This document shows positions 35,190 through 57,134 of a stretch of 64,000 bases of DNA, piece after piece. The stretch spans positions 868,001-932,000 of the forward strand of contig NZ_NBIM01000001.1 in NCBI RefSeq assembly GCF_002242685.1. The letters are read 5' to 3'. The position numbers and the translations under genes are program-made. This stretch comes from Oceanimonas doudoroffii (GTDB lineage Bacteria > Pseudomonadota > Gammaproteobacteria > Enterobacterales > Aeromonadaceae). Below the pieces are notes generated by a model, which saw only the letters and a program-made list of their open reading frames with translations, did no database searches and had not been told where the DNA came from. How positions within the stretch are numbered: the stretch's first letter is position 1; every line of letters begins with the position of its first letter.

Positions 35190-35201
35190 TTATTCCCACT
35201 C
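35190..35201. other. left attachment repeat of the guaA island (attL)
   Basis: TTATTCCCACTC is identical to the last 12 bases of guaA at 55505-55516 (codons Glu-Trp-Glu-stop on the minus strand). The two copies bound the integrase-bearing island. Confidence 0.85.
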
Positions 35202-36839: not shown

Positions 36840-36897
36840 AACGTTATCACCTTAAGTTATTACGTGAGATTATTATCAGTATTTATTCACTGATAAT

Positions 36898-38130: not shown

Positions 38131-38179
38131 ACAAATATCACTCTTTTTCAATTTATTAGGGATGAAGTGTGCTGCTCAT

Positions 38180-39034: not shown

Positions 39035-39049
39035 AGGTTTCTCCTAATA

Positions 39050-40177
39050 TTATTTGGATAGATACAATGTAAATTCGGTAATTTCGGCAGGAACACCTAA
39101 GCGGATGGGAAATCCATTCCACAATGCAGCCCCGTTGCTGACATATAACTGCATCGTTGGCAGTTGATATAAACCCGATATAAATCCTTGGTTAGCATAC
39201 TTTGCTATCTGATTGAGCCCCCAAATCATGCCTCCGTGTGTGTGCCCAGATAGCTGAAGTGTCACCCCTTGTTTATCTGCTAATGCAGCGTCCGATGGTT
39301 GGTGTTTCATTAAAATAATCGGAACTGAACTTGGCACGTCTTTTAAAGCCGTCGGTATATCTGGAGTGGGAAAATCAAATTGCTTTGCAGATTCATCGGT
39401 GACACCTGCCAAGGTCAACAATGAGTCCCTGATGTTTAATGTACGGTGTTCATTATTTAGGATCGTAATACCCAACATCTCGAAGTGTTTGTTCCAGTCC
39501 ATCGCATTAAAGTAGTACTCATGATTTCCGAGGACTCCGTAGGTACCGTAACGAGCTTTTAAGTTTTTTAATGGCTTTATATCTTTATCTCTGTCCTGGA
39601 TAGTGCCATCAATGAAGTCTCCGGTTATCAAAATAAGATCTGGGTCTAACGCATTGACCTGATTGACCACCGATTTAGTCCAAGGCTCAGGAAACAAAGT
39701 GCTGACGTGTAAGTCTGTCAGTTGAACTACCCTTAGCCCATTCAAGGCTATTGGCCACTCGTGTAATGTGAGGTCAAGTTTCCGAACTTTAGGAGTCTGA
39801 ATCGCGTTACTAACACCAACTCCGGCAAATGATGTTGATAGCAGCAAGGTGATAACAGAACACACATTGTGACGATGAACAGCCCACTTTTTTCTTTTAT
39901 TGATAAAAAATAAGACGATAGATAAGAGATCTTTTATCAGCGTTATAGCGACGATAAGTACAAAGGTACAAAACGCCCACCCAAGTAAAATGACCAGCCA
40001 TCGTGGTAACTCTGGTGAAAACATGGTTCCAAATATTTGGATTTGTATTAGGTGATATTGAGAAATGAATAGAAAAATAGTGGCAATAAACCATTTAAAA
40101 GGTTTATGTACCTTCATTGGCCCGATAAAACGCCATGACAAAAAAACGAAACCTAATGCAATATAAAGATGAAACAT
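39050..40177 (-). CDS. membrane metallophosphoesterase (YaeI-like)
   Basis: The 375-residue protein has four N-terminal membrane helices, then a calcineurin-like domain. Its metal-binding blocks are QLTDLHVS, GDFIDG, LGNHEYY, MKHQP and SGHTHGGMIWG, as in YaeI-type bacterial phosphodiesterases that cleave lipid-linked or nucleotide phosphates with two metals. It is first in the operon; an IS5-family insertion now sits 108 bases upstream of its start, where the promoter region shared with LysR lies. Confidence 0.88.
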   Translation of the reverse strand: MFHLYIALGFVFLSWRFIGPMKVHKPFKWFIATIFLFISQYHLIQIQIFGTMFSPELPRWLVILLGWAFCTFVLIVAITLIKDLLSIVLFFINKRKKWAVHRHNVCSVITLLLSTSFAGVGVSNAIQTPKVRKLDLTLHEWPIALNGLRVVQLTDLHVSTLFPEPWTKSVVNQVNALDPDLILITGDFIDGTIQDRDKDIKPLKNLKARYGTYGVLGNHEYYFNAMDWNKHFEMLGITILNNEHRTLNIRDSLLTLAGVTDESAKQFDFPTPDIPTALKDVPSSVPIILMKHQPSDAALADKQGVTLQLSGHTHGGMIWGLNQIAKYANQGFISGLYQLPTMQLYVSNGAALWNGFPIRLGVPAEITEFTLYLSK

Positions 40178-40266
40178 ACCATCAAAACCAATACATCATT
40201 GTTGAACCAATATTTATAATATTAGGAATTTAATGGCTTATCTTACGTGTTTTGTACACGCTTCAT

Positions 40267-40283
40267 TGAATTCAATTCAACTA
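40267..40283. repeat. 17-bp repeat left of the IS, candidate LysR operator
   Basis: TGAATTCAATTCAACTA differs at one base from the copy at 41524-41540, 16 bases before the LysR start. Its end overlaps the IS target duplication. Confidence 0.55.
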
Positions 40284-41446
40284 AGGAAGCTGTGATCAAG
40301 TCTGCCGCATGAGATAATGTCCGCTGCACACGATTGGGGACATAGAGATGGATCAGCAACTTACATTCGCGGACAGCGAGTTCAGCAACAAACGCCGCCA
40401 GACCCGTAAGGAGAAATTCCTTGGCCGGATGGACAAGCTGATCCCCTGGACGCGTCTCGAAAACGTCATCGAACCTCATTATCCCAAGCCCGGTAACGGC
40501 CGCCGTCCTTATCCGTTGTCTACCATGCTGCGGATTCACTGCATGCAACAGTGGTACAACCTCAGTGATCCGGCCATGGAGGATGCGCTGTACGAGATTG
40601 CTTCCATGCGCCTGTTTGCCGGTCTGTCACTGGATAAGGCCATCCCAGATCATTCCACGATTCTGAAGTTCCGCCACCTGCTGGTACAACATGGCCTGGC
40701 ACGCCAGATCTTCGACGAGGTCAATCAGTGGCTGTCCGAGGCCGGTGTGCTGCTCAAGGAAGGTTCCCTGATCGATGCCACCATCATCGAGGCCCCCAGT
40801 TCAACCAAGAACCGCAGTGGCGAGCGCGATCCTGAGATGCACCAGACGAAGAAGGGAAACCAATGGCACTTCGGGCTGAAAGCCCATATCGGCGTGGATG
40901 CCCGCACCGGTATCACGCACAGCTTCACCACTACGGCAGCCAATGAGCATGACCTGAACCAGGCAGAGCACCTGCTTCATGGTGATGAAGCGTTCATCTT
41001 TGCCGATGCGGGTTACCGAGGCGCCGAAAAGCGGGAAGAGCTGAAAGATGTCAGTACGGACTGGCACATCGCCGAACAACCCGGGCAGCTGAAGACCCTG
41101 AAAAAGCATCCTCGCATCAATAAGGTCAGAATCCGCACCGAGTATCTGAAGGCCAGCCTGCGTGCCAAGGTTGAGCATCCGTTCCGGATCATCAAGTGCC
41201 AGTTCGGCTTTGTAAAAGCCCGTTACCGTGGTCTGAAGAAAAATGACGGCAAACTGGCGATGCTGTTCGCGCTGTCAAACCTCGTGCGCGTGGTTCAGAT
41301 GTTGCGAGCACAGGGTTAATCCGTCTGAAGTGCCTGAAAAGGCGCCTCGCCGATGGAAAACGCAGGATAGTGACGTCTAAATGGGGCCCCAGTTGCTACG
41401 GGTGCTGGTTGCAGCAGAAGTGGAGGCTTAATCACACGTTCCCTAA
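40281..41446. mobile_element. IS5-family insertion sequence with CTAA target duplication
   Basis: The element is 40285-41442 (1158 bp). The left end GGAAGCTGTGATCAAGTCTG and the inverse of the right end (GGAACGTGTGATTAAGCCTC) match at 16 of the first 22 positions, and the left end resembles that of E. coli IS5. CTAA occurs on both outer sides (40281-40284, 41443-41446), the YTAR target duplication of this family. One intact transposase gene is inside. Confidence 0.92.
40348..41319 (+). CDS. IS5-family transposase
   Basis: This intact 323-residue DDE transposase is very like InsH of IS5: N-terminal [54 protein letters not shown], then [13 protein letters not shown] with the first Asp, [15 protein letters not shown] with the second and [12 protein letters not shown] with the Glu (YREK signature region). 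Its GC content is higher than the flanking genes, supporting recent arrival from a GC-rich genome. Confidence 0.95.
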
Positions 41447-41523
41447 AAGGATACGAATGTTTTTCGACCTTACGGTTTGAAAACACAAGGTGAAATCAGT
41501 TCAAGGCCGGTATAGACTAATGA

Positions 41524-41540
41524 TGAATTCCATTCAACTA
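41524..41540. repeat. 17-bp repeat right of the IS, candidate LysR operator
   Basis: TGAATTCCATTCAACTA lies 16 bases upstream of the LysR start and matches 16 of 17 positions of 40267-40283. Without the IS the two copies would be about 95 bases apart. Confidence 0.55.
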
Positions 41541-41556
41541 CATAGCGTATTTATCA

Positions 41557-42501
41557 ATGAGCAGCCAGACGACAAAGTTGTCCAAAAACGATCTCTCAAA
41601 CCTTAATGCTTTTTGTACTGTTGAGCGGCTACGGAGCTTTACGAATGCGGCTAACGAACTTGGTATTACTACCTCGGCTTTGAGCCACGCAATTAAAAAT
41701 CTGGAAGAGCGATTAGGCGTAAAACTGCTTAATAGAACCAGTCGCACTGTAGCTCCGACGGATGCTGGTGCGAATTTGGCACGTAGGCTCGATGTGGGCT
41801 TTAAGGAGATCGGGTTAGCGCTGGATGATGTAAACCGTTATCGCGACAGACCATTTGGAAAGCTACGGCTGAGCGTACTGACAGACAGTGCCAGGCTTAT
41901 TCTGGGAAAATACGTCCATCAGTTCTTGGCCAAATACCCAGATGTTCAACTAGAAATATCGGTAAATGATCAGATGGTTGATATTGTTTCTGAGGGGTTT
42001 GATGCTGGTATTCGGTTTGGTGGTACGGTTCCCGAAGACTTTGTCGCAGCGAGATTAGGAAATGAGTTGAAATGGGTCACTGTGGCATCACCGAAATATC
42101 TATTTAAGCGGCCAGAACTGAACGTACCAGAAGATTTAGTGAATCATACTTGTATTCGTCTGCGTTCCGGGCGAGGTGAAGTCTTTAAGTGGGATTTTCA
42201 AAAAGGCGATGAACACCGAGCTATTGAGGTTCAAAGTAATATTTGTGTCAATGAAACAGCATTGTCAGTCGAGTTATCGCTCGCAGGCGTAGGTATTACG
42301 TATTGTTTAGAAGAGATCGTTAAAGAACATTTGAAGAGTGGCGAGTTAGTGACCGTTCTTCCGGATTGGTGCACGATCGATCCACCTCTGTACCTGTATT
42401 ACCCTGGCCATCGACAGGTACCACAAGGTTTAAGAGAGTTAATTGCAACATTACGTGAAGAGATTTCGTTTCACAATAAAATGAGTAGCAATAGATATTG
42501 A
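41557..42501 (+). CDS. LysR family transcriptional regulator (divergent to the AKR-MFS-SDR operon)
   Basis: The 314-residue protein has the LysR helix-turn-helix (SFTNAANELGITTSALSHAIKNLEERLGVKLLNRTSR) and a CrgA/DmlR-like ligand domain (FGKLRLSVL, SEGFDAGIRFGG). It originally lay divergent to the metallophosphoesterase-led operon with about 218 bases between; the IS now separates them, so regulation of the operon may be broken or changed. AT-rich codon use matches the operon, so the set probably moved together. Confidence 0.88.
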   Translation: MSSQTTKLSKNDLSNLNAFCTVERLRSFTNAANELGITTSALSHAIKNLEERLGVKLLNRTSRTVAPTDAGANLARRLDVGFKEIGLALDDVNRYRDRPFGKLRLSVLTDSARLILGKYVHQFLAKYPDVQLEISVNDQMVDIVSEGFDAGIRFGGTVPEDFVAARLGNELKWVTVASPKYLFKRPELNVPEDLVNHTCIRLRSGRGEVFKWDFQKGDEHRAIEVQSNICVNETALSVELSLAGVGITYCLEEIVKEHLKSGELVTVLPDWCTIDPPLYLYYPGHRQVPQGLRELIATLREEISFHNKMSSNRY

Positions 42502-42703: not shown

Positions 42704-42958
42704 CTACTTGCGTCGGCCAAACGGCCAACGTCTCATTTTGTCGATTTGATCGGCCGATCTCGTCATGTCCTTATAGGCACGCCCGGCCTGCTTGTTTTGG
42801 AGTACCTCCATTTTGTCGGCAATGGCTTTCATCTTCGGGCCATGTCCGGTGTTGTGCAGCCACTGGCCCCAAAAATAGAAGGCCAGCATCACAATGAACA
42901 TCACTGCGAAGAAACCAAATACCTCCGCAAGGTTTTGGGGTGGAAAGTTAAACTCCAT
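42704..42958 (-). CDS. small membrane protein of the trb-like operon
   Basis: This 84-residue protein has one transmembrane helix (about 14-32, FFAVMFIVMLAFYFWGQWL) and a basic cytoplasmic tail ending in MRRWPFGRRK. No family recognised. It is the last gene of the transfer operon, 21 bases after the previous one. Its place after trbL is that of the small trbM-P genes of IncP plasmids, but no similarity is evident. Confidence 0.6.
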   Translation of the reverse strand: MEFNFPPQNLAEVFGFFAVMFIVMLAFYFWGQWLHNTGHGPKMKAIADKMEVLQNKQAGRAYKDMTRSADQIDKMRRWPFGRRK

Positions 42959-42978
42959 AATCAGTAATCCTTATCTAG

Positions 42979-43257
42979 TTAGGCCATGCGGCCTTTTTTA
43001 ACAAAGCTGGCAATCTCACTATTTCGTTCCTGCTGACGTTCCTGGGCAAACGAAACGTAATCCTCAACGTCGAAGGTGTGCTTTTCCGGGTCGCGCTCTT
43101 GCCATTCTGCGTGTGCTTGGCGGGCTTCTTCCTGGCCCTCACTGGATAGGCCATCAAAGCCGTCCGTTTGATTCATCCAGCCAGTGCCTCCACCGCCTAA
43201 GCTATCGTTGTCAAATGCAGGGGAAGCGGCGTCAGTCGCCCTCCTTGTCGTCGTCAT
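42979..43257 (-). CDS. hypothetical protein overlapping trbL
   Basis: This 92-residue acidic, Gln/Glu-rich soluble protein has a disordered Gly-rich N-terminus (DNDSLGGGGTGWMNQ) and a helical C-terminal half (SFAQERQQERNSEIASFVKKG). Its start lies within the last 26 bases of trbL in another frame, indicating translational coupling. Function is unknown; conserved position suggests a transfer accessory role. Confidence 0.6.
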   Translation of the reverse strand: MTTTRRATDAASPAFDNDSLGGGGTGWMNQTDGFDGLSSEGQEEARQAHAEWQERDPEKHTFDVEDYVSFAQERQQERNSEIASFVKKGRMA

Positions 43258-44527
43258 CCCCGTTATCTTTCGTACTGTTTCGGATCGAGCTGGCTAGACG
43301 ACCTCCAGCAGTTCGGCCAATCCGATCCCCGGCCATATCACCCATACCCTTCATCAAATTTGCACCGGTATCCGCTGCAATACGACCAGCTTTTACAGCG
43401 CTGCCTTTAAAGCCGCCACCAGAGGATTCGCCACCGCTAGAAGATTGGCCGGACGCTTGGGAAAATGAGCCAGCTTCATCGGAGTCGCCGCCACCGCTAA
43501 ATGCTCCGCCCAGGCTCGACATAACGTCAGTATTGTTCGCTACGTTCTCACCTGCTTTTGCAAATGCAGCCTGAATAGCAGACGCACCGCCGGCGGTAGC
43601 CATTGCTGCACCAGCAGCCATACCGCCAGTGGCAACAGCCGCTCCAGCCATCGCTCCGGCACTGATACTGCCAGCACCTGCCGCCGCGCCGCCTCCAGGA
43701 ACCAGGCTGGCGACCACATTGGGAACCGAGTGAATGAGCATCACAAGAACCAGTGAAACGACAAAGATCACCAGCAGTTCACGCATAGGGGCATCATTGG
43801 ATAGATCGGCATAGAAACCGTCCATGATCGACATGGCAATGCCAATGAGCAACGTCATTGTCATCAACTTCAAAGCAACGCCCAATACACTTTTGAAGTA
43901 GTTGATTGCTATATCTGAAGTCCAACGCGAACCACCAAACCCCAGCACGAAGACACCGGCATAGGTCAATATCCAAGCCGTCACCAAGGCCAACAACACA
44001 TTGGCTGCCACTACCGCCATACAAGCCAAAATTGCCAGCGTGATTAAGAAAATAGACAAGTTATCTATCGGGCTTGTGATGCTGTAGGACTTACCAGCTT
44101 TCACAATAATGTCGAACGCAATACTAATAGGCTCTGACGGGGTTAGGTCTCTCGGAAGGCCACCGGCTTGAGCACCAATCATTCTCAACGAGTCGATGAT
44201 AGACGTCGCAAAGTCTGGGCCGTTTCTGAGCAACCAGAGAAAGAAACCAAACGTCAAGATGAAGCGCACGAACTCGGCAAAGAACTCCCTTATATCCGCT
44301 TGTTTAAGGATTAAGGTCCCGCCAGTCCAAACAAGGGATATAGTACCCAGCGTCCAGAACAGCCAGGCAGCATAGTTTGTAATTACCGTGCCCCAAGTAG
44401 CACTGGCCGTCATGAAACGCACGGCCACTTCATCCAAGACACCATTAGGCTCAATGGCCGCTGACGCAGTTTGCGAAGTCAGTAAAACTGCAAGGAGCAT
44501 CACAAGTCGAATGAATATCTTGCTCAT
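43232..44527 (-). CDS. trbL: TrbL/VirB6-like inner membrane protein of a type IV secretion system
   Basis: The 431-residue protein has a signal peptide (MSKIFIRLVMLLAVLLTSQTA) and then about six transmembrane helices between residues 40 and 275 (for example TLGTISLVWTGGTLIL and FVLGFGGSRWTSDIAI, the latter typical of TrbL). A long Gly/Ala/Ser-rich tail and an Asp-rich end (DDDDKEGD) follow. TrbL/VirB6 forms the inner-membrane channel through which DNA passes. It lies two bases after the lipoprotein gene. There is no trbB-I set here, so it would have to join a helper apparatus. Confidence 0.85.
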   Translation of the reverse strand: MSKIFIRLVMLLAVLLTSQTASAAIEPNGVLDEVAVRFMTASATWGTVITNYAAWLFWTLGTISLVWTGGTLILKQADIREFFAEFVRFILTFGFFLWLLRNGPDFATSIIDSLRMIGAQAGGLPRDLTPSEPISIAFDIIVKAGKSYSITSPIDNLSIFLITLAILACMAVVAANVLLALVTAWILTYAGVFVLGFGGSRWTSDIAINYFKSVLGVALKLMTMTLLIGIAMSIMDGFYADLSNDAPMRELLVIFVVSLVLVMLIHSVPNVVASLVPGGGAAAGAGSISAGAMAGAAVATGGMAAGAAMATAGGASAIQAAFAKAGENVANNTDVMSSLGGAFSGGGDSDEAGSFSQASGQSSSGGESSGGGFKGSAVKAGRIAADTGANLMKGMGDMAGDRIGRTAGGRLASSIRNSTKDNGDDDDKEGD

Positions 44528-44529
44528 GG

Positions 44530-44727
44530 TTAGAACCCCTTGTTCTTGGAGCGATCAGTGGGTTCGCCCATATCCCAAAGACAGTTCCCTTCTTCCCTCT
44601 GCTCTTTCGTCAAGCTTGGGTTGTCACAGTTGATCGTTGCAGGCTTAGGCCCGTCATCTTCACCGCACCCCACCAGAACGAAAGAGGCCAACGCGCTAAC
44701 GATAAAAACACGGGTGATATTCTTCAT
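44530..44727 (-). CDS. small lipoprotein in TrbK position (possible entry-exclusion protein)
   Basis: The 65-residue product has a lipoprotein signal peptide with lipobox LVGC at about 18-21. A short mature part with two further Cys follows, ending in DMGEPTDRSKNKGF. In IncP plasmids the gene between trbJ and trbL is trbK, a 69-residue lipoprotein that excludes incoming copies of the same plasmid; size, lipobox and position agree, while sequence identity cannot be judged here. Its 14-residue tail is nearly the same as that of TrbJ upstream. Confidence 0.7.
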   Translation of the reverse strand: MKNITRVFIVSALASFVLVGCGEDDGPKPATINCDNPSLTKEQREEGNCLWDMGEPTDRSKNKGF

Positions 44728-44729
44728 GA

Positions 44730-45506
44730 TTAGAACCCCCTGTTTTCTGAACGGTCGGTTGGCTCTCCCATATCGAACAACCTTTCACGGGACGCTTGAT
44801 ATTGAGCTTCGCGGTCAGCATCCGCCTGCATTCGAGTGCCAACGGCATTCTGCTGAGCAATCAGCAGGCTACGGATTTGCAGGAGCTGGTTAGCCTGGTT
44901 GCTGGCGAGCTGATTGGCGTAGCCAATGGCAGCAAGTTGGCCGTCTGCGCCCTGGGCGGCAGATTGCAGACGCTGGAGCTGCCGCGAGTCGGCTTGCAAG
45001 TTGTCTTGCTGCTGCTCCAGCCCTCTGAACAATGCGTCGTTGGCTTTTTTTTGCGACTCAGACGCCAAGCGGCGGTTTTCTTCCATTGCCGCTTGTTCAC
45101 TCGGCGTACAACCGCCAGAGCCATTAAAACAGGGAGATCCGCGGTAATAGGCCACGTCCTGAAACTTGCCCAGATAAGCATCCAAGCTGCCAAGCTGATT
45201 TTTGTAATGCTGAAGAGTATTGGTTGCCTGAACCAGGTCATTGATGGTGGCCTGAGCTTGATCCCAAATGTAAGCAGCCGGAGCCATGGTGTTTTGCAGC
45301 TGGTTTTCGTACTGCTGCAGCTGGGTCTGATATTCCTGAATCTGTTTCAGGGTCTGTGCAACGGCCTCCATCGCTGACATGGTGTTCTGCGCCAGGTTGG
45401 TGCCATCCACCACGGGAATGCCCGCTTGCACAGGCACAGGAGAGATCAGGGCGACTGAAAAAGCGAGCGCAGCCATTTTAGCCGCTAAAATCGGTTCTCT
45501 TTGCAT
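44730..45506 (-). CDS. trbJ: TrbJ/VirB5-like conjugal transfer protein
   Basis: The 258-residue exported protein has a signal peptide ending near VPVQAG and long glutamine-rich coiled-coil helices (VAQTLKQIQEYQTQLQQYENQL...), a short Cys-containing loop (SPCFNGSGGC) and a second coiled coil, as in TrbJ/VirB5 proteins that sit at the pilus tip or in the periplasm. Start 45506 keeps a charged n-region; the alternative ATG at 45476 lies immediately after the palindromic operator candidate. The C-terminus ends in DMGEPTDRSENRGF, shared with the next protein. Confidence 0.85.
   Translation of the reverse strand: MQREPILAAKMAALAFSVALISPVPVQAGIPVVDGTNLAQNTMSAMEAVAQTLKQIQEYQTQLQQYENQLQNTMAPAAYIWDQAQATINDLVQATNTLQHYKNQLGSLDAYLGKFQDVAYYRGSPCFNGSGGCTPSEQAAMEENRRLASESQKKANDALFRGLEQQQDNLQADSRQLQRLQSAAQGADGQLAAIGYANQLASNQANQLLQIRSLLIAQQNAVGTRMQADADREAQYQASRERLFDMGEPTDRSENRGF
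45476..45490. promoter_or_regulatory. 15-bp palindrome at trbJ start (site 1 of 3)
   Basis: TTTTAGC-C-GCTAAAA is a perfect palindrome around one base. It lies over codons 6-11 of the long trbJ reading, or just before the alternative ATG at 45476. The same palindrome occurs twice upstream of the alpA-repA-repC operon. Confidence 0.65.
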
Positions 45507-45761: not shown

Positions 45762-47540
45762 CTACAGTGACCGCCCTTTCTTTTGTCTTTTCGCTTTTTT
45801 GGCATCCATTTCTGCTCGTAGCCTGGCTTTGCGCCGCTCCTGTTCACTTGGTTTTGGCTGAATGGACGCTCTGCTTGCGCGTTTCTCAAAGCTCAATGCA
45901 TCAAGCTGAGATAGGGTTTTCAGCCGGTTACGGCGCATTGATGGCGGACACTGGCCGATTGGTGGCACTCCGGCGCGTCTGCTTCGAGCTTTGGCATCGG
46001 TTGTGCTCCGGCTCCGGACTAACGACTGGCGGCGTTGTTCCAGGCCAGGATCTGCAAACGTAACCGATAGCTGCCCATCCACAGCCGCACGGATCACTCT
46101 TGCCTTAAACTCCGGCGAGCCATTTACAGTAATACGGTTGCCATAACGTTCCATCGCCATTCTGAGCGCACTCTGCACAGCCGCCTGGCCGGACTCTCTG
46201 GAAACCTGCAGCCGGTCGCCGTCATCGCGTACAGCGCTGGAGCCAACCCGGTAAATGATGGTGCCCTTTTTGGTGATGCTGTCGATCACCGGCGTATGCC
46301 CGGGCTTGGTCTGCCCTTCTCCCCTGAGCGTGTTGCCCTTGAGGCCCTGAGCAGCCTCTCTGGCCCTCAGCGCCGCCAGCGCCTCGGCGTCGCCCTGTTG
46401 GGCCTTCTGTTTGAGCCAGTCGGCCCAGGTACGCCGGGCGTTGGCTTCATAAATGGTACTGCGCTCTTGTTGATACTGTTTCTGGATGGCGTCAATGTCC
46501 GCTTTCAAAGCACTGCTGGCCTGTGCATAAAGCAGCTTCTTGGTCAGCTTGCCGCTGCCGGTCAGTTTTATGGCTGCCCGCCTCGCTTTGCCTTTGACCT
46601 TGGCGCTTTCAAGTCGCCGGTCTTTATGCCGCCTTGCCGCTTCCAGGGCCGCTGTTTTGTTAGCCGTTGCTGTCGCCTGTTCAGCCTTGTATTTGGCGTA
46701 AAGTTCGGTGGTATTCACCCGCAGCCGCACCGGATCTTTACGGTACGTCCGGCGGGGGCTTGCCTGTTTCGTTTGCCCTGGCTCGAACGGACCGAAACGT
46801 GCTTCCAGCTTCGGCTTGGAGAAATCACGCCCCAGGGAGCTGGCTTTAACCGTTACATCATTGCTGGCCACCACAACCAACCCGTTGCCCCGTGCTTTAA
46901 GCTCCAGACCATTAGCACTCATCACCTGGTGCAGCTGGCTCCAGGACTGAGCCGTTTTCAGCTCGTCCAGACACTCGCGCTTGATCCAGCCAATCAGGCT
47001 TGTAATGCCCGCATGGCGTTCCATGTCTGCCGCCCGAGCCTCGGCTCCCTGCCGGCGCGGCATGTGGTTATCCTGCTGCAACCCGTAGTCCTGCTCCATG
47101 GCCCCGCACAGTTCGGCCAATGCTCGGTGTGAGTAGTAGGGCTCATGAATGATGTTGCGCTTTGGATGGATCTTGTTGATGGCAATATGAACATGCAGAT
47201 TGTCAGTATCATTGTGAACGGCACTGATGCGCTGATGCTCACCAAAGCCCAGTCCCTCACAAATGCAGTTTTCAATGGCGGCCAGAGTTTTGGCATCTAC
47301 CTGCTCACCGGGCCGAAAGCTGACAATCAGATGATACGTCTTGTCACTCTTTGCCCTGGTATTGGTAAACTGGGTTGCCAACACTTCGCTGATGGCATCC
47401 CTGATTGAATGCGCCTCGCAATTGGTCAACCGCACCTGGCCCAACCGATGCTCCTTGCTCTGTTTGTCGGTGATGTAATTCACCAGCCCGGCAAAGTCGG
47501 ATTTGCCCTGTGAGCGCATGGCAATGTGTTTGGCAATCAT
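45762..47540 (-). CDS. traI: MOBP relaxase (IncP TraI-like) with C-terminal LPD7 domain
   Basis: The 592-residue relaxase has the catalytic Tyr22 in GLVNYITDKQ and the metal-binding motif III HNDTDNLHVHIAINKIHP with three His, both typical of IncP TraI. A Lys/Arg-rich helical middle follows, then an LPD7-type domain (about 420-510, GTIIYRVGSSAVRDDGDRL...). It nicks oriT and pilots the strand to the recipient. It is shorter than RP4 TraI (732) and lacks the primase. The start overlaps the TraJ-like stop by four bases (ATGA). The matching oriT lies beyond TraJ. Confidence 0.92.
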   Translation of the reverse strand: MIAKHIAMRSQGKSDFAGLVNYITDKQSKEHRLGQVRLTNCEAHSIRDAISEVLATQFTNTRAKSDKTYHLIVSFRPGEQVDAKTLAAIENCICEGLGFGEHQRISAVHNDTDNLHVHIAINKIHPKRNIIHEPYYSHRALAELCGAMEQDYGLQQDNHMPRRQGAEARAADMERHAGITSLIGWIKRECLDELKTAQSWSQLHQVMSANGLELKARGNGLVVVASNDVTVKASSLGRDFSKPKLEARFGPFEPGQTKQASPRRTYRKDPVRLRVNTTELYAKYKAEQATATANKTAALEAARRHKDRRLESAKVKGKARRAAIKLTGSGKLTKKLLYAQASSALKADIDAIQKQYQQERSTIYEANARRTWADWLKQKAQQGDAEALAALRAREAAQGLKGNTLRGEGQTKPGHTPVIDSITKKGTIIYRVGSSAVRDDGDRLQVSRESGQAAVQSALRMAMERYGNRITVNGSPEFKARVIRAAVDGQLSVTFADPGLEQRRQSLVRSRSTTDAKARSRRAGVPPIGQCPPSMRRNRLKTLSQLDALSFEKRASRASIQPKPSEQERRKARLRAEMDAKKAKRQKKGRSL

Positions 47541-47911
47541 GATTCGGCCCTTGGCCGAAGAATGAACTCCATAAGGTGGCTCATTCGATCCTGATTCGTT
47601 TCGATGCGCTGGAGAAGCGCCAGTATCGTATTGGGTCCAAACGCAGCTACCTTGGCGTCATTCATCAGCCAGAGCTTTAACAGCCCACCCAGGCGGCCCA
47701 AATCACCATTTACCCTGACCAGCTCACGCACCTGCTCCGCATCGGTTACTCCCTGTATCTGATAACCCTGCCCCACCTCCCGCAGGTAGGTTGACGCACT
47801 CAGTCCCGCCCTCCTGGCATTCTCTTCAATCACCGCTCGCTCTTCAGGCAAGCAATACACCTTGATCGGGGTACAGCTCTTCCTGGTTATTTTGTTTTCC
47901 TGTGCCTCCAT
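47537..47911 (-). CDS. traJ: TraJ-like relaxosome accessory protein (MobC/ribbon-helix-helix)
   Basis: The 124-residue basic protein has an N-terminal ribbon-helix-helix (IKVYCLPEERAVIEENARRAGLSASTYLREVGQGY), then a helical segment (ELVRVNGDLGRLGGLLKLWLMND) matching RP4 TraJ, which binds oriT next to the nick and recruits TraI. Its start is about 140 bases from the predicted nick, the same order as in IncP plasmids. Confidence 0.87.
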   Translation of the reverse strand: MEAQENKITRKSCTPIKVYCLPEERAVIEENARRAGLSASTYLREVGQGYQIQGVTDAEQVRELVRVNGDLGRLGGLLKLWLMNDAKVAAFGPNTILALLQRIETNQDRMSHLMEFILRPRAES

Positions 47912-47950
47912 CTTGGTGTCCTCTTTGTGGTCGCCAGCAAAGCGTTATAG

Positions 47951-48060
47951 CCCCGCAGGGCAGGATGAACATTGAGCACCGCAGGTGCGAATAAGGGCCA
48001 GTGAAGAGGCTCCGTCATGCTTGCATGGTGGGACTACTTCACACATCCTGCCCGCACCTC
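47951..48060 (+). other. oriT: IncP-type origin of transfer (oriT) with nick region
   Basis: TTCACACATCCTGCCCGC at 48038-48055 resembles the RP4 nick region (TTCACCTATCCTG/CCCGG), placing the nick between 48050 and 48051. The inverted repeat GGGCAGGATG (47959-47968) / CATCCTGCCC (48044-48053) encloses it. GAGCACCGCAGGTGCGAATA... at 47975-48008 matches the RP4 segment with the GCACC/GGTGC hairpin and AATAAGGG-CAGTGAAGA. It is adjacent to traJ, as expected. Confidence 0.9.
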
Positions 48061-48768
48061 AGCCTTGATTCTTGTATGTATGCCCTGTGCATTTCTCTGC
48101 TTTTCTTTGTTTTCATCTGTTTTTTGCTGTGTATTTCTGCCATAACAGCCTGAATGAACGATTAGCCCGACAGTGACAGCGATCCAGTTGTGCTCCAACA
48201 GCGGTAAAATAGCGCTCTAGCAGCGTTTTCCTGTAGCGCTGTCATTATGTTCTGCACACTGGAATACACAGCTTTCCACCCGGTATCCTTATTTACTCAG
48301 GTCACCGCCCCTCATATGTCAATAAAGCCCGATTTTTGCGCCCCTCAAGTGTCAACAAAATGGGGGTACTGTGAGCAGAATAAAAATAAAAACCTTAAGT
48401 TTTAATAAGTTAAATGAGCATAAAGTTTGTAAAAACCCGTTTCATTGACACTTTCAGCATCTACATACGCAACAACACACCGAAGTGCCCTGATCATTTC
48501 CTCCCTTCGGTCGGGTTGAACGCCAAGGAATAAGAGTTACTGAGCCGTATGGGCCATTTACCTCCTGGCGTTAAACCTTCGGCCGCAGGCCGTTTAATAA
48601 AGCTCGGCAGAGCTTTTCTCCTTAAGGTGTAAACGCTCGCATAAAGCGAGCGGTTATACCGCCTGGATATCCTGAATATCCTGAAGATCCTGCTAAAACG
48701 GCAAAAAATCGGGCGGGTGTGCCACGCTTTCGGGCGGGTGCGCCACGTCTTCGGGCGGCTGTACCACG
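48061..48768. other. oriV: gene-free oriV-like region of the island
   Basis: About 700 bases without a gene lie between oriT and repC. They contain AGCGCT-rich repeats (48210-48245), two IncP-like iterons (48307-48354), an A/T-rich segment (48355-48450), three short hairpins (GGCC-rich at about 48580-48592, AAAGCTC/GAGCTTT at 48599-48616, CGCTCGC/GCGAGCG at 48634-48652) and the start of four 21-bp repeats. This is the organisation of a plasmid replication origin. Confidence 0.7.
48307..48354 (-). repeat. two IncP (TrfA-type) oriV-like iterons
   Basis: On the minus strand TGACATATGAGGGGC (48307-48321) and TGACACTTGAGGGGC (48340-48354) match the RK2 oriV iteron consensus TGACA-N2-TGAGGGGC, with 33 bases between starts. 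No trfA gene is present. Confidence 0.7.
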
Positions 48769-48792
48769 CTATCGGGCGGCTGTGCCACGCGT
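48709..48792. repeat. four tandem 21-bp iterons next to repC
   Basis: Four units start at 48709, 48730, 48751 and 48772, each TCGGGCGG-S-TG-N2-CCACG-N2-T. Spacing is exactly 21 bases, two helical turns. The last unit overlaps the end of repC. They are the likely RepC binding sites of the IncQ-type origin. Confidence 0.85.
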
Positions 48793-50958: not shown

Positions 50959-51180
50959 TGAAGCTGTTATCCAGTCCTACACGGGTGGCGCGGGGTTAGG
51001 TACGATAGCCCCAGTTCAAGAGGGTCTTTGGAGGCATAAGTCATAATGATAGTTTGAACTTTCTAAGTAAAAGAGTCATATTTAGCTGTTGCCTGAGTAC
51101 TTAATTCCCTTTATAAGCAAGGAAAACGCTGTAGCCCATAAAAATCAGATCCCTCTAGCACATACAAAGGAGTGTTAACA

Positions 51181-52785
51181 ATGATCACCAAAATCCGTAT
51201 TCGTGGGTATCGGGTATACAAGGACTTCACACTCTGCCCAAACCCTAAAAAGAACATCCTCATAGGTGATAACGACGCTGGTAAGTCCACCCTGATGGAG
51301 GCTGTATCATTAGCACTTAACGGTCGAATTCATGGGCGTAATATTCTGGAAGAATTGAATCCGCACTGGTTCAACTCCGAGTTGGTTGATCAATTCGTTG
51401 CAGCCCGAAATGCGGGTGATAAGCCATCCTTCCCCGAAATTCTAATTGAACTGTACCTGCATGATGATCCAGAACTCCAGGTGCTGTGTGGGGCGGTTAA
51501 CACCGACGTACCGACTAATGCTTGTCCCGGTGTGTTCCTAAGGATATTTCCGAATGAGGAATACCAGGATATGTTGGACGAATGGTTAAAGGCCCCAAAC
51601 GAGCTATTGCCCGTGGAGTACTACATGTACGAGTGGCGCTCGTTTGCAGACTGTGAGTTGGTTAAGCGCCCGAGAGTCCTGTCTGTTGCTACAATTGACT
51701 CCCGCACAGTCAAGTCCACAACCGGCGTGGACTACCATTTACGGCAGATCCTAAGCGATCACCTAGATCCCCCTGAAAAGGCGGCAATATCGCTGGATTA
51801 CCGAAAAATAAAAGCATCGATGACTGAGGGAGCACTTGCGCCGGTCAACGCGCGCATCGCGCAGCTAGGTGCTGCATTGCAAGCCGAACCCATGGCTCTG
51901 GCTATGGATCAGACATCCAGGACGTCCTGGGATAGCGCCATTACTCCCCACGTGGATCGTGTGCCATTTGCGATGGCAGGGCTTGGCCAGCAGGCAACTA
52001 TAAAGATCTCACTAGCTATGAAACGGCATGCAGCTAAGGTGAAGATCGTGATGGTCGAGGAGCCTGAAAATCACCTTTCACATACCAGCCTGAGAATTTT
52101 GCTGGACCGTATTGAGTCGCTAGCCTCGGATGAGCAGCAGCTCTTCATCTCGACCCATAGTACCTACGTGTTGAACCGACTTGGACTGGATGCCTTACAT
52201 CTCCTGAACCGTAATAAAGTATCGAAAATTACTGACCTATCACCAGAAACTGTCCGATATTTCCAGCGACTGCCTGGATACGACACCTTGAGATTGGTTC
52301 TGGCCAAAAAGGTGGTACTTGTTGAAGGACCTTCCGACGAAATAATCTTCGAGCGAGTGTTTAAAGATCGATTCGGACATAGTCCAATGGAGGCAGGAGT
52401 TGATGTCGTCAGCATGCGTGGCCTTGCCCTCGCGCGTTGCTTGGAGCTATGCCAGGCTATCGACAAACCGGTAGCGGTCATGCGAGACAATGATGGAGTC
52501 GAGCCCGAGGAGCTAAGAGAGACTGTTAAGCAGTGGCTGGACGAAAAAAAGCGGCAGCTTTTCATCGGCGCTGTGGCCGATGGACGAACTCTTGAGCCTC
52601 AGTTGGTCAAAGCGAATGGAGAGGAACATCTGAGGGAAGTACTAGGAATCGCTGCAAGGGCTTGTTTGAATACCTGGATGACGCGCGAGAAGACCGAAGG
52701 AGCGATACGAATCGCCGAGTCAGATAAGCCTTTGACGCCGCCAGAGTATATGAGCGAAGCTGCAGAGTTCATCCAGCATGTCTAA
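51181..52785 (+). CDS. OLD-family ATPase/TOPRIM nuclease (GajA-like)
   Basis: ATG 51181 has GGAG eight bases upstream; 534 residues. An SMC-like ATPase domain has Walker A GDNDAGKST at 29-37 and Walker B VEEPENHLSH near 300. The C-terminal TOPRIM domain has E382 in VEGPSDE and D436-x-D438 in MRDNDG. This is the architecture of overcoming-lysogenization-defect nucleases; paired with a UvrD-like helicase it corresponds to Gabija GajA (about 578 residues in the B. cereus prototype). It overlaps the helicase gene by eight bases. Confidence 0.85.
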   Translation: MITKIRIRGYRVYKDFTLCPNPKKNILIGDNDAGKSTLMEAVSLALNGRIHGRNILEELNPHWFNSELVDQFVAARNAGDKPSFPEILIELYLHDDPELQVLCGAVNTDVPTNACPGVFLRIFPNEEYQDMLDEWLKAPNELLPVEYYMYEWRSFADCELVKRPRVLSVATIDSRTVKSTTGVDYHLRQILSDHLDPPEKAAISLDYRKIKASMTEGALAPVNARIAQLGAALQAEPMALAMDQTSRTSWDSAITPHVDRVPFAMAGLGQQATIKISLAMKRHAAKVKIVMVEEPENHLSHTSLRILLDRIESLASDEQQLFISTHSTYVLNRLGLDALHLLNRNKVSKITDLSPETVRYFQRLPGYDTLRLVLAKKVVLVEGPSDEIIFERVFKDRFGHSPMEAGVDVVSMRGLALARCLELCQAIDKPVAVMRDNDGVEPEELRETVKQWLDEKKRQLFIGAVADGRTLEPQLVKANGEEHLREVLGIAARACLNTWMTREKTEGAIRIAESDKPLTPPEYMSEAAEFIQHV

Positions 52786-53845
52786 CTTCCTTACTTTAGC
52801 GGTGGCTGGCGGTCGAAAGACTCAAAGTCTAGTGAATCACTGCCAAGCATTGCCCTCAGAGCGTAAGGTTGCGCTGCTGACGTTCACTCAAACGAACCAA
52901 CAGGAGGTGAAGGCTAGGCTAACTGCTCAGGCTGGTCATGCGACTGGAGTGGAAGTCATGGGGTGGTACACGTTTCTGCTTAGGCATTTTGCAAAGCCAT
53001 TTCTGCGCTTCAAGTTTCCCGGTGAGCGAGTCGGGGGCTTCGATTTTGACGGGCGTCCAGGCAGATTTGCGCGAGGCAAAAGTAGGTTCATGACTGCCGA
53101 CAATAGAATCTTTAGCTGCGAACTAGGCCGGCTTGCTTTTGAATTAATGGAAGCCACACCGGCGCTGCTAAACCGTTTGGAATGCATCTACGACGAAATT
53201 CTAATCGACGAGGTTCAGGATCTTGCTAGCTACGATTGGGAGATCTTGCAGTTGCTACTGCATTCCAATATTGAAGTGCGGTTGGTTGGTGATGTGCGTC
53301 AGGCGGTTCTCTCCACAAATCCTCGAGGGCGCAAGAACAAGCAGTTTGATTACGCCGCTTCGTTGGAATGGTTCCTAGAGCGCGAGGCAGAAGGCTGCCT
53401 AAACATCACCTATGCAACGATTACTTATCGGTGCCGGGAGGAAATTGCGGCATTTTCGGACAGCATTTTTGATGCTAGATGGGCCTTTCCGAGGACCACA
53501 TCAGAAAACAATGATGAGACAGGGCACGACGGTGTTTACCTAGTGCGTTCCGAGCATGTCTATGAGTACATGGCCCGGTTCAGCCCTCAATGTTTAAGGT
53601 ACAGTATAAGCTCGGCCAAACATCTGGATCTTCCATTCCAGAATTTCAAAGGGGTTAAGGGTGCCACCTTTGAGCGTGTGCTGATTGCTCCTACCAAAAA
53701 CATAGAAAACTTCATCAAAAACGGAACACCTTTGGAGTCGACAGCTGCTGCAGCGTTTTACGTTGCAGTCACCCGCGCCAAGCAAAGCCTTGCAATCGTG
53801 CTCGACCTGCCAGGGAAGTCTCACCTGCAATACTGGGCTCCCTGA
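52778..53845 (+). CDS. short UvrD/Rep-like helicase (GajB-like)
   Basis: The 355-residue superfamily 1 helicase-like protein is shorter than typical GajB (about 490). Walker B is ILIDEVQDL near 143-151, motif III-like LVGDVRQAV follows, and motif VI is AFYVAVTRAKQSL. The N-terminal motif I reads VAGGRKTQSL, one residue short of the usual AGxGxGKT spacing but with Lys-Thr kept. It is translationally coupled to the OLD nuclease gene. Together they are most likely an anti-phage or anti-plasmid system of Gabija type; activity is inferred. Confidence 0.8.
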   Translation: MSNFLTLAVAGGRKTQSLVNHCQALPSERKVALLTFTQTNQQEVKARLTAQAGHATGVEVMGWYTFLLRHFAKPFLRFKFPGERVGGFDFDGRPGRFARGKSRFMTADNRIFSCELGRLAFELMEATPALLNRLECIYDEILIDEVQDLASYDWEILQLLLHSNIEVRLVGDVRQAVLSTNPRGRKNKQFDYAASLEWFLEREAEGCLNITYATITYRCREEIAAFSDSIFDARWAFPRTTSENNDETGHDGVYLVRSEHVYEYMARFSPQCLRYSISSAKHLDLPFQNFKGVKGATFERVLIAPTKNIENFIKNGTPLESTAAAAFYVAVTRAKQSLAIVLDLPGKSHLQYWAP

Positions 53846-53999: not shown

Positions 54000-55196
54000 T
54001 TAGCGGTCTTCAAAAACCCACTCATCAATCATATCCGCCCAGTCCTGCAGCATGGCCGTGCGCTGTTCGCGGTACTCGGCTTTGTTATACACGGCCCTCA
54101 CCCCCTTCTGTTCGTGGGCCAGACATTTCTCTATCCAGTCAGTGTTGTAACCAGCTTCATGGAGTAAGGTACTTGCTGTACGCCTCAGATCGTGGGGCCC
54201 AAACTTGGCCAGGGGCTGCCCTTCTTTCTGAGCCAGTTTATAGGTCAGGTCCAGAACGCGGTTCAGGGTGGCGCTGCTCATGGGCAAGTCGGAGTCGTAG
54301 CGGGATGGCAGTATGTAGTCTGAACCACCGGAGAAGGTCTTGAGGGCAATGAGAATGTCCAGGGCCTGGCGGGACAGGAACACCAAATGGGGATTTCGCC
54401 GTTTCATCCGCTCTTTGGGAATGGTCCACAACGCTTCGCTGAAGTTAATTTCGCTCCAGGTGGCATTGGTCAGCTCGCTTTTTCGTACCATGGTCAGCAG
54501 CAACAGCTTTACCGCTGCCCGAATGGACGGTGAGGTCCCGATCCGCTCAATGTACTGGTACATGAGTTTGATTTCCTCCGGTGACAGGGTGCGGTCCCGG
54601 GGTTCAAACCTGGCAATGCTGGAAGGCCTTACCGAATCGGCCGGGTTCTCTACCTTTTGCCCTCGTTCAATGGCCCAGCGGTATACCTGGAGCACAATAT
54701 CACGGGTATGAACGGCAGTAGCAGGAGCTCCACGGTCTACAATGGCATCGGTCAGCGTTCGCAAGTCTTCATGGGTGATCTCGGTCAGCTTCTGGTTACC
54801 GAATTTCGTTTCCAGTTCTCTGGTATACACCGAGCGGCGCATATCCCGGGTGGAGTCCGCCATCTGATAGCCTCTCAGCCATTTCTCCGCCCAGGCACCA
54901 AAGGTTTCCGCGTCTTTCACCCGGGCCTTTTTCCGGGCTTTCTCCTTGGCCGGTGATTTGCCATCGGCCACCATGCGCTTGGCTTCATGCAGCTGCTCCC
55001 GTGCTTCCGCCAGGGTAATGCCCCCCACACCATAGCGGCCAAAGGTGATCGTCTCCTGTCGTCCATGAATGGAGTAGTTGTAACGGAACGAGACGGTGCC
55101 GGCCGGCGTCACGGCCACATAGAGGCCATCCCGGTCGTTCACCTTGTAAAGCTTGTCTCTGGGCTTGAGGTGGCGCAGCTTGGTATCAGTCAGCAT
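54000..55196 (-). CDS. int: tyrosine integrase, P4 type (with DUF4102 arm-binding domain)
   Basis: The 398-residue integrase starts MLTDTKLRHLKPRDKLYKVND, the DUF4102 arm-binding domain. A core-binding SAM-like domain follows (about 100-190), then a catalytic domain with Arg in TMVRKSELTN, His-x2-Arg in GPHDLRRTAS, His in CLAHEQ and Tyr in RAVYNKAEY. It catalyses insertion into and excision from the guaA 3' end. It is transcribed away from guaA, with arm-type repeats upstream. Confidence 0.95.
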   Translation of the reverse strand: MLTDTKLRHLKPRDKLYKVNDRDGLYVAVTPAGTVSFRYNYSIHGRQETITFGRYGVGGITLAEAREQLHEAKRMVADGKSPAKEKARKKARVKDAETFGAWAEKWLRGYQMADSTRDMRRSVYTRELETKFGNQKLTEITHEDLRTLTDAIVDRGAPATAVHTRDIVLQVYRWAIERGQKVENPADSVRPSSIARFEPRDRTLSPEEIKLMYQYIERIGTSPSIRAAVKLLLLTMVRKSELTNATWSEINFSEALWTIPKERMKRRNPHLVFLSRQALDILIALKTFSGGSDYILPSRYDSDLPMSSATLNRVLDLTYKLAQKEGQPLAKFGPHDLRRTASTLLHEAGYNTDWIEKCLAHEQKGVRAVYNKAEYREQRTAMLQDWADMIDEWVFEDR

Positions 55197-55504: not shown

Positions 55505-55516
55505 TTATTCCCACTC
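55505..55516. other. right attachment repeat (attR), end of guaA
   Basis: TTATTCCCACTC is the reverse complement of the last three codons and stop of guaA and is identical to 35190-35201. Confidence 0.85.
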
Positions 55517-57082: not shown

Positions 57083-57134
57083 CGTCTTCCTACTCGTTAC
57101 AAACACCGCCTGTGGGGGGAGCAGGCGGCAATAG

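What the first reader, a model, noticed from the sequence alone, without database searches (positions are those of the whole stretch)
42704..45506. Orphan trbJ-trbK-like-trbL module in a satellite island: subunit swapping of a helper conjugation machine
Only the VirB5-like (TrbJ), a TrbK-position lipoprotein and the VirB6-like (TrbL) genes are present; trbB-I and the coupling protein are absent, while oriT and relaxase are of IncP type. SGI1-type islands are known to carry traG, traH and traN that replace helper plasmid subunits and evade entry exclusion. An IncP-directed equivalent made of exactly the pilus-tip, exclusion and channel subunits would be a new version of this strategy.
Basis: partly seen in the sequence, partly recalled or inferred. 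Interest (0 to 1): 0.85.

Follow-up and report, generated by a model that had tools for sequence, protein, structure and literature searches.

The report
Satellite island's borrowed conjugation-tip gene cassette
A mobile DNA island that hitchhikes on other elements' transfer machines carries three of that machine's genes, and the tail of its pilus-tip protein is copied in the small protein thought to block re-entry, a match seen in most related conjugation systems examined that may explain how cells recognise and refuse their own kind.

Summary
The module is real: trbJ, a 65-aa lipoprotein gene and trbL lie in one direction behind an IncP-type oriT motif, traJ and traI, in a ~20.3-kb island at the 3' end of guaA. 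The genome has one TrbL and no VirB4, VirB10 or VirD4 match. This is a new member of that kind.

What appears new is how the cassette may work. TrbJ's last residues recur at the end of the lipoprotein (DMGEPTDRSENRGF / DMGEPTDRSKNKGF). In 39 diverged loci TrbJ tails match their own TrbK tails (mean score 54.8; other pairs 23.0; 0 of 20,000 shuffles), while codons agree about as codon usage predicts. TrbJ bodies 82-87% identical carry different tails, and TrbK tail and TrbL differ with them. In print, TrbK's C-terminus is essential for exclusion, and TrbJ or TrbK protects recipients from the RP4 machine. I infer that TrbK mimics the VirB5 tail and that tail-K-L is a self-recognition cassette. 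Function is untested; RP4-type and IncN/IncW matches are weak.

The parts
35190..35201 (.). left att repeat TTATTCCCACTC
   Evidence: 12-bp exact repeat of the guaA 3' end; its reverse complement GAGTGGGAATAA agrees with the att core printed for guaA islands
55505..55516 (.). right att repeat, inside the 3' end of guaA (55505-57106, minus strand)
54000..55196 (-). tyrosine integrase next to guaA
   Evidence: NCBIfam integrase domain NF007246 158 bits, under its cut-off of 434; 86-92% identical integrases in the 10 surveyed loci that also show guaA
50352..50597 (-). AlpA-like regulator
   Evidence: Pfam PF05930 41.6 bits
49511..50464 (-). RepA-like AAA ATPase
   Evidence: Pfam AAA_25 96.8 bits
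48769..49530 (-). RepC-like ORF
   Evidence: no Pfam hit; named from position next to repA; 64-100% tblastn matches in nine surveyed loci
48038..48054 (+). oriT nic-region motif TTCACACATCCTGCCCG
   Evidence: same motif in 41 of the 135 loci then held, in 39 of 51 orphan loci and 0 of 25 Tra2 loci
47537..47911 (-). TraJ (NikA-like) relaxosome protein
   Evidence: NF010451 185 bits; PF21983
45762..47540 (-). TraI, MOBP relaxase
   Evidence: NF041893 582 bits; PF03432
44730..45506 (-). TrbJ (VirB5-like pilus-tip protein)
   Evidence: NF010452 395 bits
44733..44774 (-). TrbJ C-terminal tail DMGEPTDRSENRGF
   Evidence: coil after the last helix in a weak AlphaFold2 model
44530..44727 (-). TrbK-position lipoprotein, 65 aa
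   Evidence: lipobox LVGC; TIGR04359 19 bits, under the cut-off of 23
44533..44574 (-). TrbK C-terminal tail DMGEPTDRSKNKGF, copy of the TrbJ tail
   Evidence: statistics
43232..44527 (-). TrbL (VirB6-like stalk/channel protein)
   Evidence: TIGR02783 255 bits; PF04610 133.8 bits
42979..43257 (-). 92-aa ORF after trbL, unknown
   Evidence: no family above its curated cut-off
42704..42958 (-). 84-aa small membrane protein ORF at the end of the operon
   Evidence: tblastn 85-95% in L005-L014, 50% in L017 and 40% in L016; no relation by pairwise score to the ORFs after trbL in pMATVIM-7, pF010_2 and R485
51172..53845 (+). cargo: Gabija defence pair gajA-gajB
   Evidence: PADLOC GajA 789 bits, GajB 490 bits

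Best explanation
The island is an integrative mobilisable element of the 'IncP island' kind. It excises from guaA, nicks its own IncP-type oriT with its own TraI/TraJ, and leaves through the mating machine of a co-resident IncP-like helper. trbJ-K-L is a specificity cassette. TrbJ (pilus tip, seated on the VirB6 stalk) and TrbL replace or mix with the helper's VirB5 and VirB6. The C-terminal tail of TrbJ is a self tag, and TrbK displays the same tail from the envelope of a cell that already owns the element. When a machine with a matching tag arrives, TrbK's tail occupies the site meant for the TrbJ tail (most simply on TrbL; tail-to-tail pairing is the alternative) and blocks transfer. By bringing its own tail, K and L together, the satellite makes a machine that the helper's TrbK does not recognise, while it keeps out its own sisters. 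Shown here: anatomy, absence of the other machine parts tested, co-variation of J tail, K tail and TrbL, and selection at protein level. From papers: TrbK's C-terminus is needed for exclusion; TrbJ or TrbK in the recipient protects against killing by the RP4 machine; trbJ and trbL are essential for transfer in one plasmid. Inferred: excision, incorporation into a helper machine, the tag's receptor, and evasion of exclusion.
For: Own J-K tail score 54.8 vs 23.0 for other pairs in 39 representatives; 0 of 20,000 shuffles; J residues -75 to -25 against the K tail 14.8, and J tail against the K body 17.9. Partial Mantel, given TrbJ body: J tail~K tail 0.66, J tail~TrbL (first 250 residues) 0.67; given TrbL: J tail~K tail 0.40; each 0 of 2,000. 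Of 377 identical residues 165 share a codon (0.44; 0.39 expected from codon usage), so not recent gene conversion as a rule. In the host's family all 7 other trbJ-type loci have matching tails, of 5 kinds, with TrbJ 69-97% identical to the window's. Fifteen further plasmid pairs, Ti, Campylobacter, Nitrosomonas and Neisseria included: own 52.2 vs 17.0, 0 of 20,000. 19 of 20 orphan representatives match their own K better than any of 23 Ks of Tra2 loci. Papers: C-terminus essential, and no donor partner of IncP TrbK known; trbJ and trbL essential in pKPC_UVA01; recipient TrbJ or TrbK protects from killing by RP4's machine; VirB5 sits on VirB6.
Against: No experiment. In one search the own K ranks first of 39 for only 16 TrbJ tails and among the best three for 26, since relatives share tails; own J-K similarity reaches the best J-J similarity in 5 of 39. 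The match is weak in the best-studied plasmids: IncP-1alpha pBS228 28 (best foreign score 36), IncN R46 21 (27), IncW R388 22 (23); S. arizonae 31 (36). L078 and L080 score below the mean of foreign pairs. In 3 of the 9 Eex-family loci where a profile found VirB5 (L100, L101, L128) I see little or no match. The last residues of the window's tails also encode the next gene's ribosome-binding site, so part of this one match may be translational. PMC5704250 calls TrbK the only protein involved in RP4 entry exclusion, so protection by recipient TrbJ, shown against killing, may not be exclusion of DNA. pKPC_UVA01 TrbK also excludes IncP and IncN plasmids, against strict tag matching. Related loci share history; the shuffles do not remove all of that.
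Confidence: 0.57

Rival explanations
1. The shared tail is a docking signal that TrbJ and TrbK both need for their own assembly or localisation (for instance binding the same TrbL site inside the donor). Exclusion is caused by another part of TrbK.
For: J tail and TrbL co-vary given the TrbJ body (0.67); pKPC_UVA01 exclusion needs TrbK in the donor too.
Against: Truncation or early stop in TrbK's C-terminal region abolishes exclusion in the recipient, though protein localisation of the truncated forms is not reported in the section read. Recipient TrbJ alone protects against killing by RP4's machine.
Confidence: 0.22
2. The cassette mainly defends: trbJKL on a resident island protects the host and the island from incoming IncP-like elements, and does not take part in the island's own transfer.
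For: The island also carries Gabija; TrbJ or TrbK in the recipient suffices against killing by RP4's machine; an E. coli guaA island has an additional EexN-family lipoprotein next to its integrase.
Against: Defence would not need TrbL, yet J, K and L stand together in 80 of 86 loci (TrbL was the bait, so its own presence is by construction). The cassette sits directly behind oriT-traJ-traI in the window, and the satellite tails differ from those of the Tra2 loci, which is wrong for excluding them.
Confidence: 0.13
3. The module is a relic of a former self-transmissible element.
For: Trees need 6 (TrbL) and 8 (TrbJ body) changes between satellite and Tra2 loci, so genes have moved between the two.
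Against: 51 of the 80 loci kept lack the other machine genes, and 48 of those have traI, traJ or oriT; the three genes are intact in the window and tails are kept at protein level with codons free.
Confidence: 0.04
4. The tail similarity is a DNA-level effect (repeated ribosome-binding or coupling sequence before each following gene), or repeated duplication of the 3' end of trbJ.
For: Both tails end just before a start codon in the window; in L040 9 of 12 and in L061 13 of 16 identical residues share the codon.
Against: Over 39 loci codon identity is 0.44 against 0.39 expected; in the window D-M-G-E-P-T-D-R-S is kept while 7 of the 9 codons differ.
Confidence: 0.04

Closest known systems
'IncP island' (Burkholderia glumae, Brucella suis; PMC5704250, passages read)
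   Same: guaA 3' end, tyrosine integrase, own MobP relaxase and TraJ, RepA, TrbJ, small TrbK-position protein, TrbL; no other machine parts named; the same subversion hypothesis in print
   Different: carries Gabija and metabolic cargo; TraK not identified here; the lipoprotein scores under the TrbK_RP4 cut-off; the J/K tail identity is not mentioned in the passages read
GIsul2 (PMC5704250, PMC9376610, passages read)
   Same: guaA, TrbJ-TrbK-TrbL, RepA/RepC, AlpA, integrase
   Different: GIsul2 has no relaxase; this island has TraI, TraJ and an oriT motif
GIflu islands of Vibrio (PMC13418153, passages read)
   Same: guaA att core GAGTGGGAATAAT; int, traJ, traI, trbJ core; 20 sequences compared there
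   Different: resistance cargo in part of them; mating test without transconjugants
ICERspD18B (PMC7775301, passages read)
   Same: guaA island with relaxase and trbL, trbK, trbJ; moved from Rheinheimera to E. coli at about 2.76e-7 per donor
   Different: called an ICE there; three relaxase copies; helper not identified in the passages read
SGI1 (as described in PMC5704250, passages read)
   Same: carries machine subunits that replace the helper's and defeats helper exclusion through its TraG
   Different: F-type TraG/TraH/TraN, IncC helper, no canonical relaxase, trmE site
TrbK of RP4 and pKPC_UVA01 (PMC8923210, sections 8 and 14 and passages read)
   Same: small lipoprotein between trbJ and trbL; C-terminus needed for exclusion
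   Different: similarity of its C-terminus to TrbJ is not mentioned in the sections and passages read; pKPC_UVA01 itself was not fetched

Membership tests
IncP island (IME of PMC5704250) | integration at the 3' end of guaA by a tyrosine integrase | tested here: met
   integrase 54000-55196 beside guaA; 12-bp att repeats at 35190 and 55505; excision not testable
IncP island (IME of PMC5704250) | own MobP relaxase and TraJ | tested here: met
   582 and 185 bits, above cut-offs
IncP island (IME of PMC5704250) | TraK relaxosome protein | tested here: inconclusive
   only open stretches of 50 aa or more in 47901-48800 were listed; no TraK profile was run on them
IncP island (IME of PMC5704250) | TrbJ and TrbL with a small exclusion-type protein between them | tested here: met
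   TrbK only by position, lipobox and tail
IncP island (IME of PMC5704250) | no other MPF or coupling genes | tested here: met
   VirB4, VirB10 and VirD4 families 0 matches in the genome; other trb genes not searched genome-wide
IncP island (IME of PMC5704250) | mobilisation by IncP plasmids | not testable with these tools
   only proposed in the review as well
GIsul2 | no relaxase of its own | tested here: not met
   TraI present
SGI1 | F-type TraG, TraH, TraN and trmE site | tested here: not met
   P-type TrbJ/TrbL and guaA site
TrbK entry-exclusion lipoproteins | score above the curated TrbK_RP4 model | tested here: not met
   19 bits, cut-off 23
TrbK entry-exclusion lipoproteins | small lipoprotein between trbJ and trbL | tested here: met
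   65 aa, lipobox LVGC, position
TrbK entry-exclusion lipoproteins | blocks entry when present in the recipient | not testable with these tools
   needs mating assays
VirB5/TrbJ | TrbJ family profile above cut-off | tested here: met
   NF010452 395 bits, TIGR02780 207 bits; a profile with IncN and IncW members also hits solved TraC and TrwJ, partly by construction
ICE (self-transmissible) | complete MPF and coupling protein | tested here: not met

The most novel reading that the evidence does not exclude
Entry exclusion in P-type (MPF_T) conjugation works by mimicry of the pilus tip: each element's exclusion lipoprotein ends in a copy of the C-terminal tail of its own VirB5/TrbJ, and this tail is the self tag read between donor and recipient. 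J tail, K and L form a cassette that plasmids and satellites exchange as one block, so satellite islands carry the minimum needed to re-key a helper's machine. It would supply the missing donor-side partner of IncP TrbK, and explain why TrbJ in a recipient also protects.
Probability: 0.57. Interest if true: 0.88.

Novelty: new member of a known kind. Interest (0 to 1): 0.7.

Why it matters
The island itself is one more member of a published family, and the helper-reshaping idea is in print. The tail match bears on an open question: PMC8923210 states that no donor factor is known as the partner of TrbK in IncP plasmids. A short peptide at the end of VirB5, copied at the end of the exclusion protein, would make exclusion specificity in this large class of conjugation machines predictable from sequence and testable with small deletions. 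It also gives a reason why satellites take exactly trbJ, trbK and trbL, and a way to predict which helper plasmids exclude which satellites. [quoted passage not shown]

Tried and rejected
Relic of a broken ICE: rejected as main reading, because modules without the other machine genes but with oriT and relaxosome genes are common among the loci kept. One ancestral satellite clade: rejected, the TrbL tree needs 6 changes of the satellite label and starred branches force 6. DNA-level origin of the tails: rejected by codon use. A fourth satellite-wide gene after trbL: the 84-aa ORF is found only in close relatives.

Led nowhere: viral contigs gave no TrbL relative. TrbK_Ti profile searches over 274 and 289 genomes gave one weak hit each. 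AlphaFold2 of TrbJ has mean pLDDT 61.6, too weak for more than helix ends; no fold search was run on it.

Rows dropped or chosen: one search dropped 6 of 86 loci (L019, L038 without a J or L hit; L043, L049, L055, L059 without a lipoprotein ORF by my regular expression). In one search, L043, L049 and L059 do show an ORF with a matching tail; L055 shows none. The 51 'orphan' loci are defined by lack of trbB/E/F/G/I matches with at least 2.5 kb upstream; L038, without a trbJ hit, is among them. L131 has no gene between trbJ and trbL. The statistic (18 pairs, own 21.2, others 15.7, 28 of 20,000 shuffles) contains wrong upstream ORFs and is not used. Of 18 plasmid loci fetched for the wider test (L087-L097, L130-L136), one search uses 15: L131 has no K, and pBj and Bradyrhizobium ISRA437 (both matching) were left out as Ti relatives; for pTE_C_2 the second of two trbK genes was taken, the first does not match. 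The seven family loci are not independent of the survey: the K proteins of L139, L143, L144 and L145 equal those of L008, L024, L074 and L051, start residue aside.
Full report
What is there. The three genes are intact and in one direction and are named by curated models: TrbJ 395 bits, TrbL_P 255 bits; the 65-aa lipoprotein falls under the TrbK_RP4 cut-off, 19 against 23 bits. Upstream lie the MOBP relaxase TraI, TraJ and an IncP-like nic motif at 48038 (the consensus behind it is recalled). Then follow RepC-like (by position), RepA-like and AlpA-like genes, a Gabija pair, the integrase, and guaA. A 12-bp repeat, TTATTCCCACTC, at 35190 and at the end of guaA (55505) bounds about 20.3 kb. In the host genome TrbL occurs once, and VirB4, VirB10 and VirD4 families give no match. 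TrbJ relatives are patchy in the host's family: 10 of 75 genomes match, the own genome included, 2 of these only distantly.

It is a known kind. PMC5704250 (passages) describes GIsul2 and the guaA 'IncP island' with TrbJ, a 69-aa TrbK-position protein and TrbL, and proposes that they reshape the machine of IncP helpers as SGI1 does for IncC. PMC13418153 (passages) compares 20 such Vibrio islands and obtained no transconjugants from its strain. PMC7775301 (passages) saw one move to E. coli at about 2.76e-7 per donor. Mobilisable resistance plasmids hold the same set: pMATVIM-7, pF010_2. A trbJKL query from the IncP plasmid pAKD14 finds a match in 328 of 5,426 complete E. coli genomes, 270 of 336 places on chromosomes; none covers 80% of the query and many listed ones cover only part of trbJ. 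The one I opened is a guaA island with traJ-trbJ-K-trbL.

Survey. A TrbL alignment found 262 relatives in genome contigs, of which the best 80 were kept. By tblastn with machine genes of two plasmids, 51 of 80 lack the other machine genes, 25 belong to full or partial Tra2 operons and 4 end too soon to tell. Of the 51, 48 have traI, traJ or the oriT motif, and 16 show integrase or guaA inside the flank. Satellites are not one clade: the TrbL tree needs 6 changes of label, forced by starred branches. These 80 are the relatives closest to the query, so the share of orphans is not a share of all Trb systems.

The tail. TrbJ ends in DMGEPTDRSENRGF, the lipoprotein in DMGEPTDRSKNKGF; of 12 identical residues other than Met or Trp, 4 share a codon. 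Listing all loci showed that TrbJ and TrbK ends agree within almost every locus and differ between groups of loci: STESRYVPEPKPKKW/STESRYVPEPNPKRW, WKISPPDRSKSKGY/WHVTPPDRSKSKGY, SPKNWLELAR/QPLNWLELTEP. Of 86 loci, 80 gave J, K and L; 39 representatives differ by more than 15% in TrbJ. Own-pair local score 54.8 against 23.0 for other pairs, 0 of 20,000 shuffles as high (maximum 33.5); controls outside the tails 14.8 and 17.9. Because relatives share tails, the own K ranks first of 39 for 16 tails and in the best three for 26; two representatives (L078, L080) score below the mean of foreign pairs. Identical residues share codons at 0.44 against 0.39 expected, so selection acts mainly on the peptide.

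Natural swaps. Halomonadaceae satellites (L052, L058, L064, L067, L072, L082, L083) have TrbJ bodies 84-86% identical to the window's, but tail similarity 0.12, K tail 0.11 and TrbL 45-47%. The Tra2 locus L068 has body 87%, tail 0.19, K 0.10, TrbL 52%. In the host's own family, 7 of the 9 loci besides the window's are trbJ-type; all 7 have a matching K (scores 40-75), and the tails are of five kinds; the other 2 are distant J hits for which no K was found. Four of these seven carry K proteins already met in the survey. J tail, K tail and TrbL distances correlate after removal of TrbJ-body distance (0.64-0.67), and J tail with K tail after removal of TrbL distance (0.40), each 0 of 2,000 permutations. 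I read this as a block boundary inside trbJ, before the tail.

Beyond the family. Fifteen plasmid pairs, none of them among the 80 loci: own 52.2, others 17.0, 0 of 20,000. C. fetus 123, pTiC58 79, R485 76, pBAR1 67, Labrenzia 66, pTE_C_2 62, Nitrosomonas 48, pAKD14 47, pEM10-18-28_2 43, N. gonorrhoeae 41, S. arizonae 31, Citrobacter 29, pBS228 (IncP-alpha-type TrbK) 28, R388 22, R46 21. In S. arizonae, pBS228, R388 and R46 some foreign K scores higher than the own one. The Eex_IncN profile matched in 23 of 398 genomes and gave 30 loci; in 9 of these a profile finds VirB5, and by eye the tails match in six (L099, L102, L103, L104, L111, L117) and little or not at all in three (L100, L101, L128). 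This part is eye-judged.

Reading it. PMC8923210 (sections 8 and 14 and passages) reports that TrbK's C-terminal region is essential for exclusion, cites the same for RP4, states that no donor partner of IncP TrbK is known, and finds trbJ and trbL but not trbK essential for transfer of pKPC_UVA01. PMC11045733 (passages) reports that among the genes tested (Tra2 genes and traF) only trbJ or trbK in the recipient protected against killing by the RP4 machine. Against this, PMC5704250 calls TrbK the only protein involved in RP4 exclusion. A structural review (PMC12624023, passages) places VirB5 on VirB6. A copied tail would join these: TrbK offers the tip protein's own tail. TrbL is the simplest receptor because it co-varies with the tail, but contact is not shown, and tail-to-tail pairing is not excluded.

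Consequence for the satellite. In 19 of 20 orphan representatives (the exception is L046) the J tail fits its own K better than any of 23 K proteins of full or partial Tra2 loci; for Tra2 representatives this holds in 7 of 19. Satellites therefore bring a key that the Tra2 loci sampled do not lock against. This supports, without proving, the view that trbJKL re-keys the helper and keeps out sister islands.

Literature limits. Ten searches of the open-access library and the passages read showed no report of the TrbJ/TrbK tail match. One search lists 28 papers with both names; of these I read parts of five (PMC8923210, PMC11045733, PMC5704250, PMC2848598, PMC7775301) and saw the others only as titles and abstract starts. 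Haase 1996 is not held, and subscription papers were not searchable, so priority is not settled.

Noticed in passing
window 51172-53845 (+): Gabija defence pair (GajA 789 bits, GajB 490 bits in PADLOC) as cargo between the replication genes and the integrase.
   Followed up: yes
L137 4125-4358 (-), E. coli W5-6 guaA island: A second, separate exclusion-like gene (EexN family) beside the integrase, far from trbJ-K-L; its end NITTSKPKSW resembles by eye the TrbJ tail NISTSSSKNW of a complete plasmid system (L097). It might exclude a competitor or helper.
   Followed up: partly
L092 3209-3594 (pTE_C_2): Two tandem trbK genes; only the second carries the TrbJ-like tail.
   Followed up: partly
L094 3268-3408 (N. 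gonorrhoeae WHO L plasmid 2): Exclusion-type lipoprotein ORF between trbJ and trbL not annotated in the record; its end DVLKRPYKRKE matches TrbJ DILKHPYRRGQ.
   Followed up: yes
L002, L003, L004, L091, after trbL: ptaRNA1-family type I toxin gene follows the trbJ-K-L module in four plasmids.
   Followed up: no
L091 (plasmid R485): A repA-repC-stabilisation gene-trbJ-K-L block, GIsul2-like (my label), sits in an IncX-typed plasmid.
   Followed up: no
window 36012-42501: Left arm of the island holds an aldo-keto reductase, an MFS transporter, an SDR enzyme, a phosphoesterase, an IS5-like transposase and a LysR regulator; functions judged from the sequences only.
   Followed up: no
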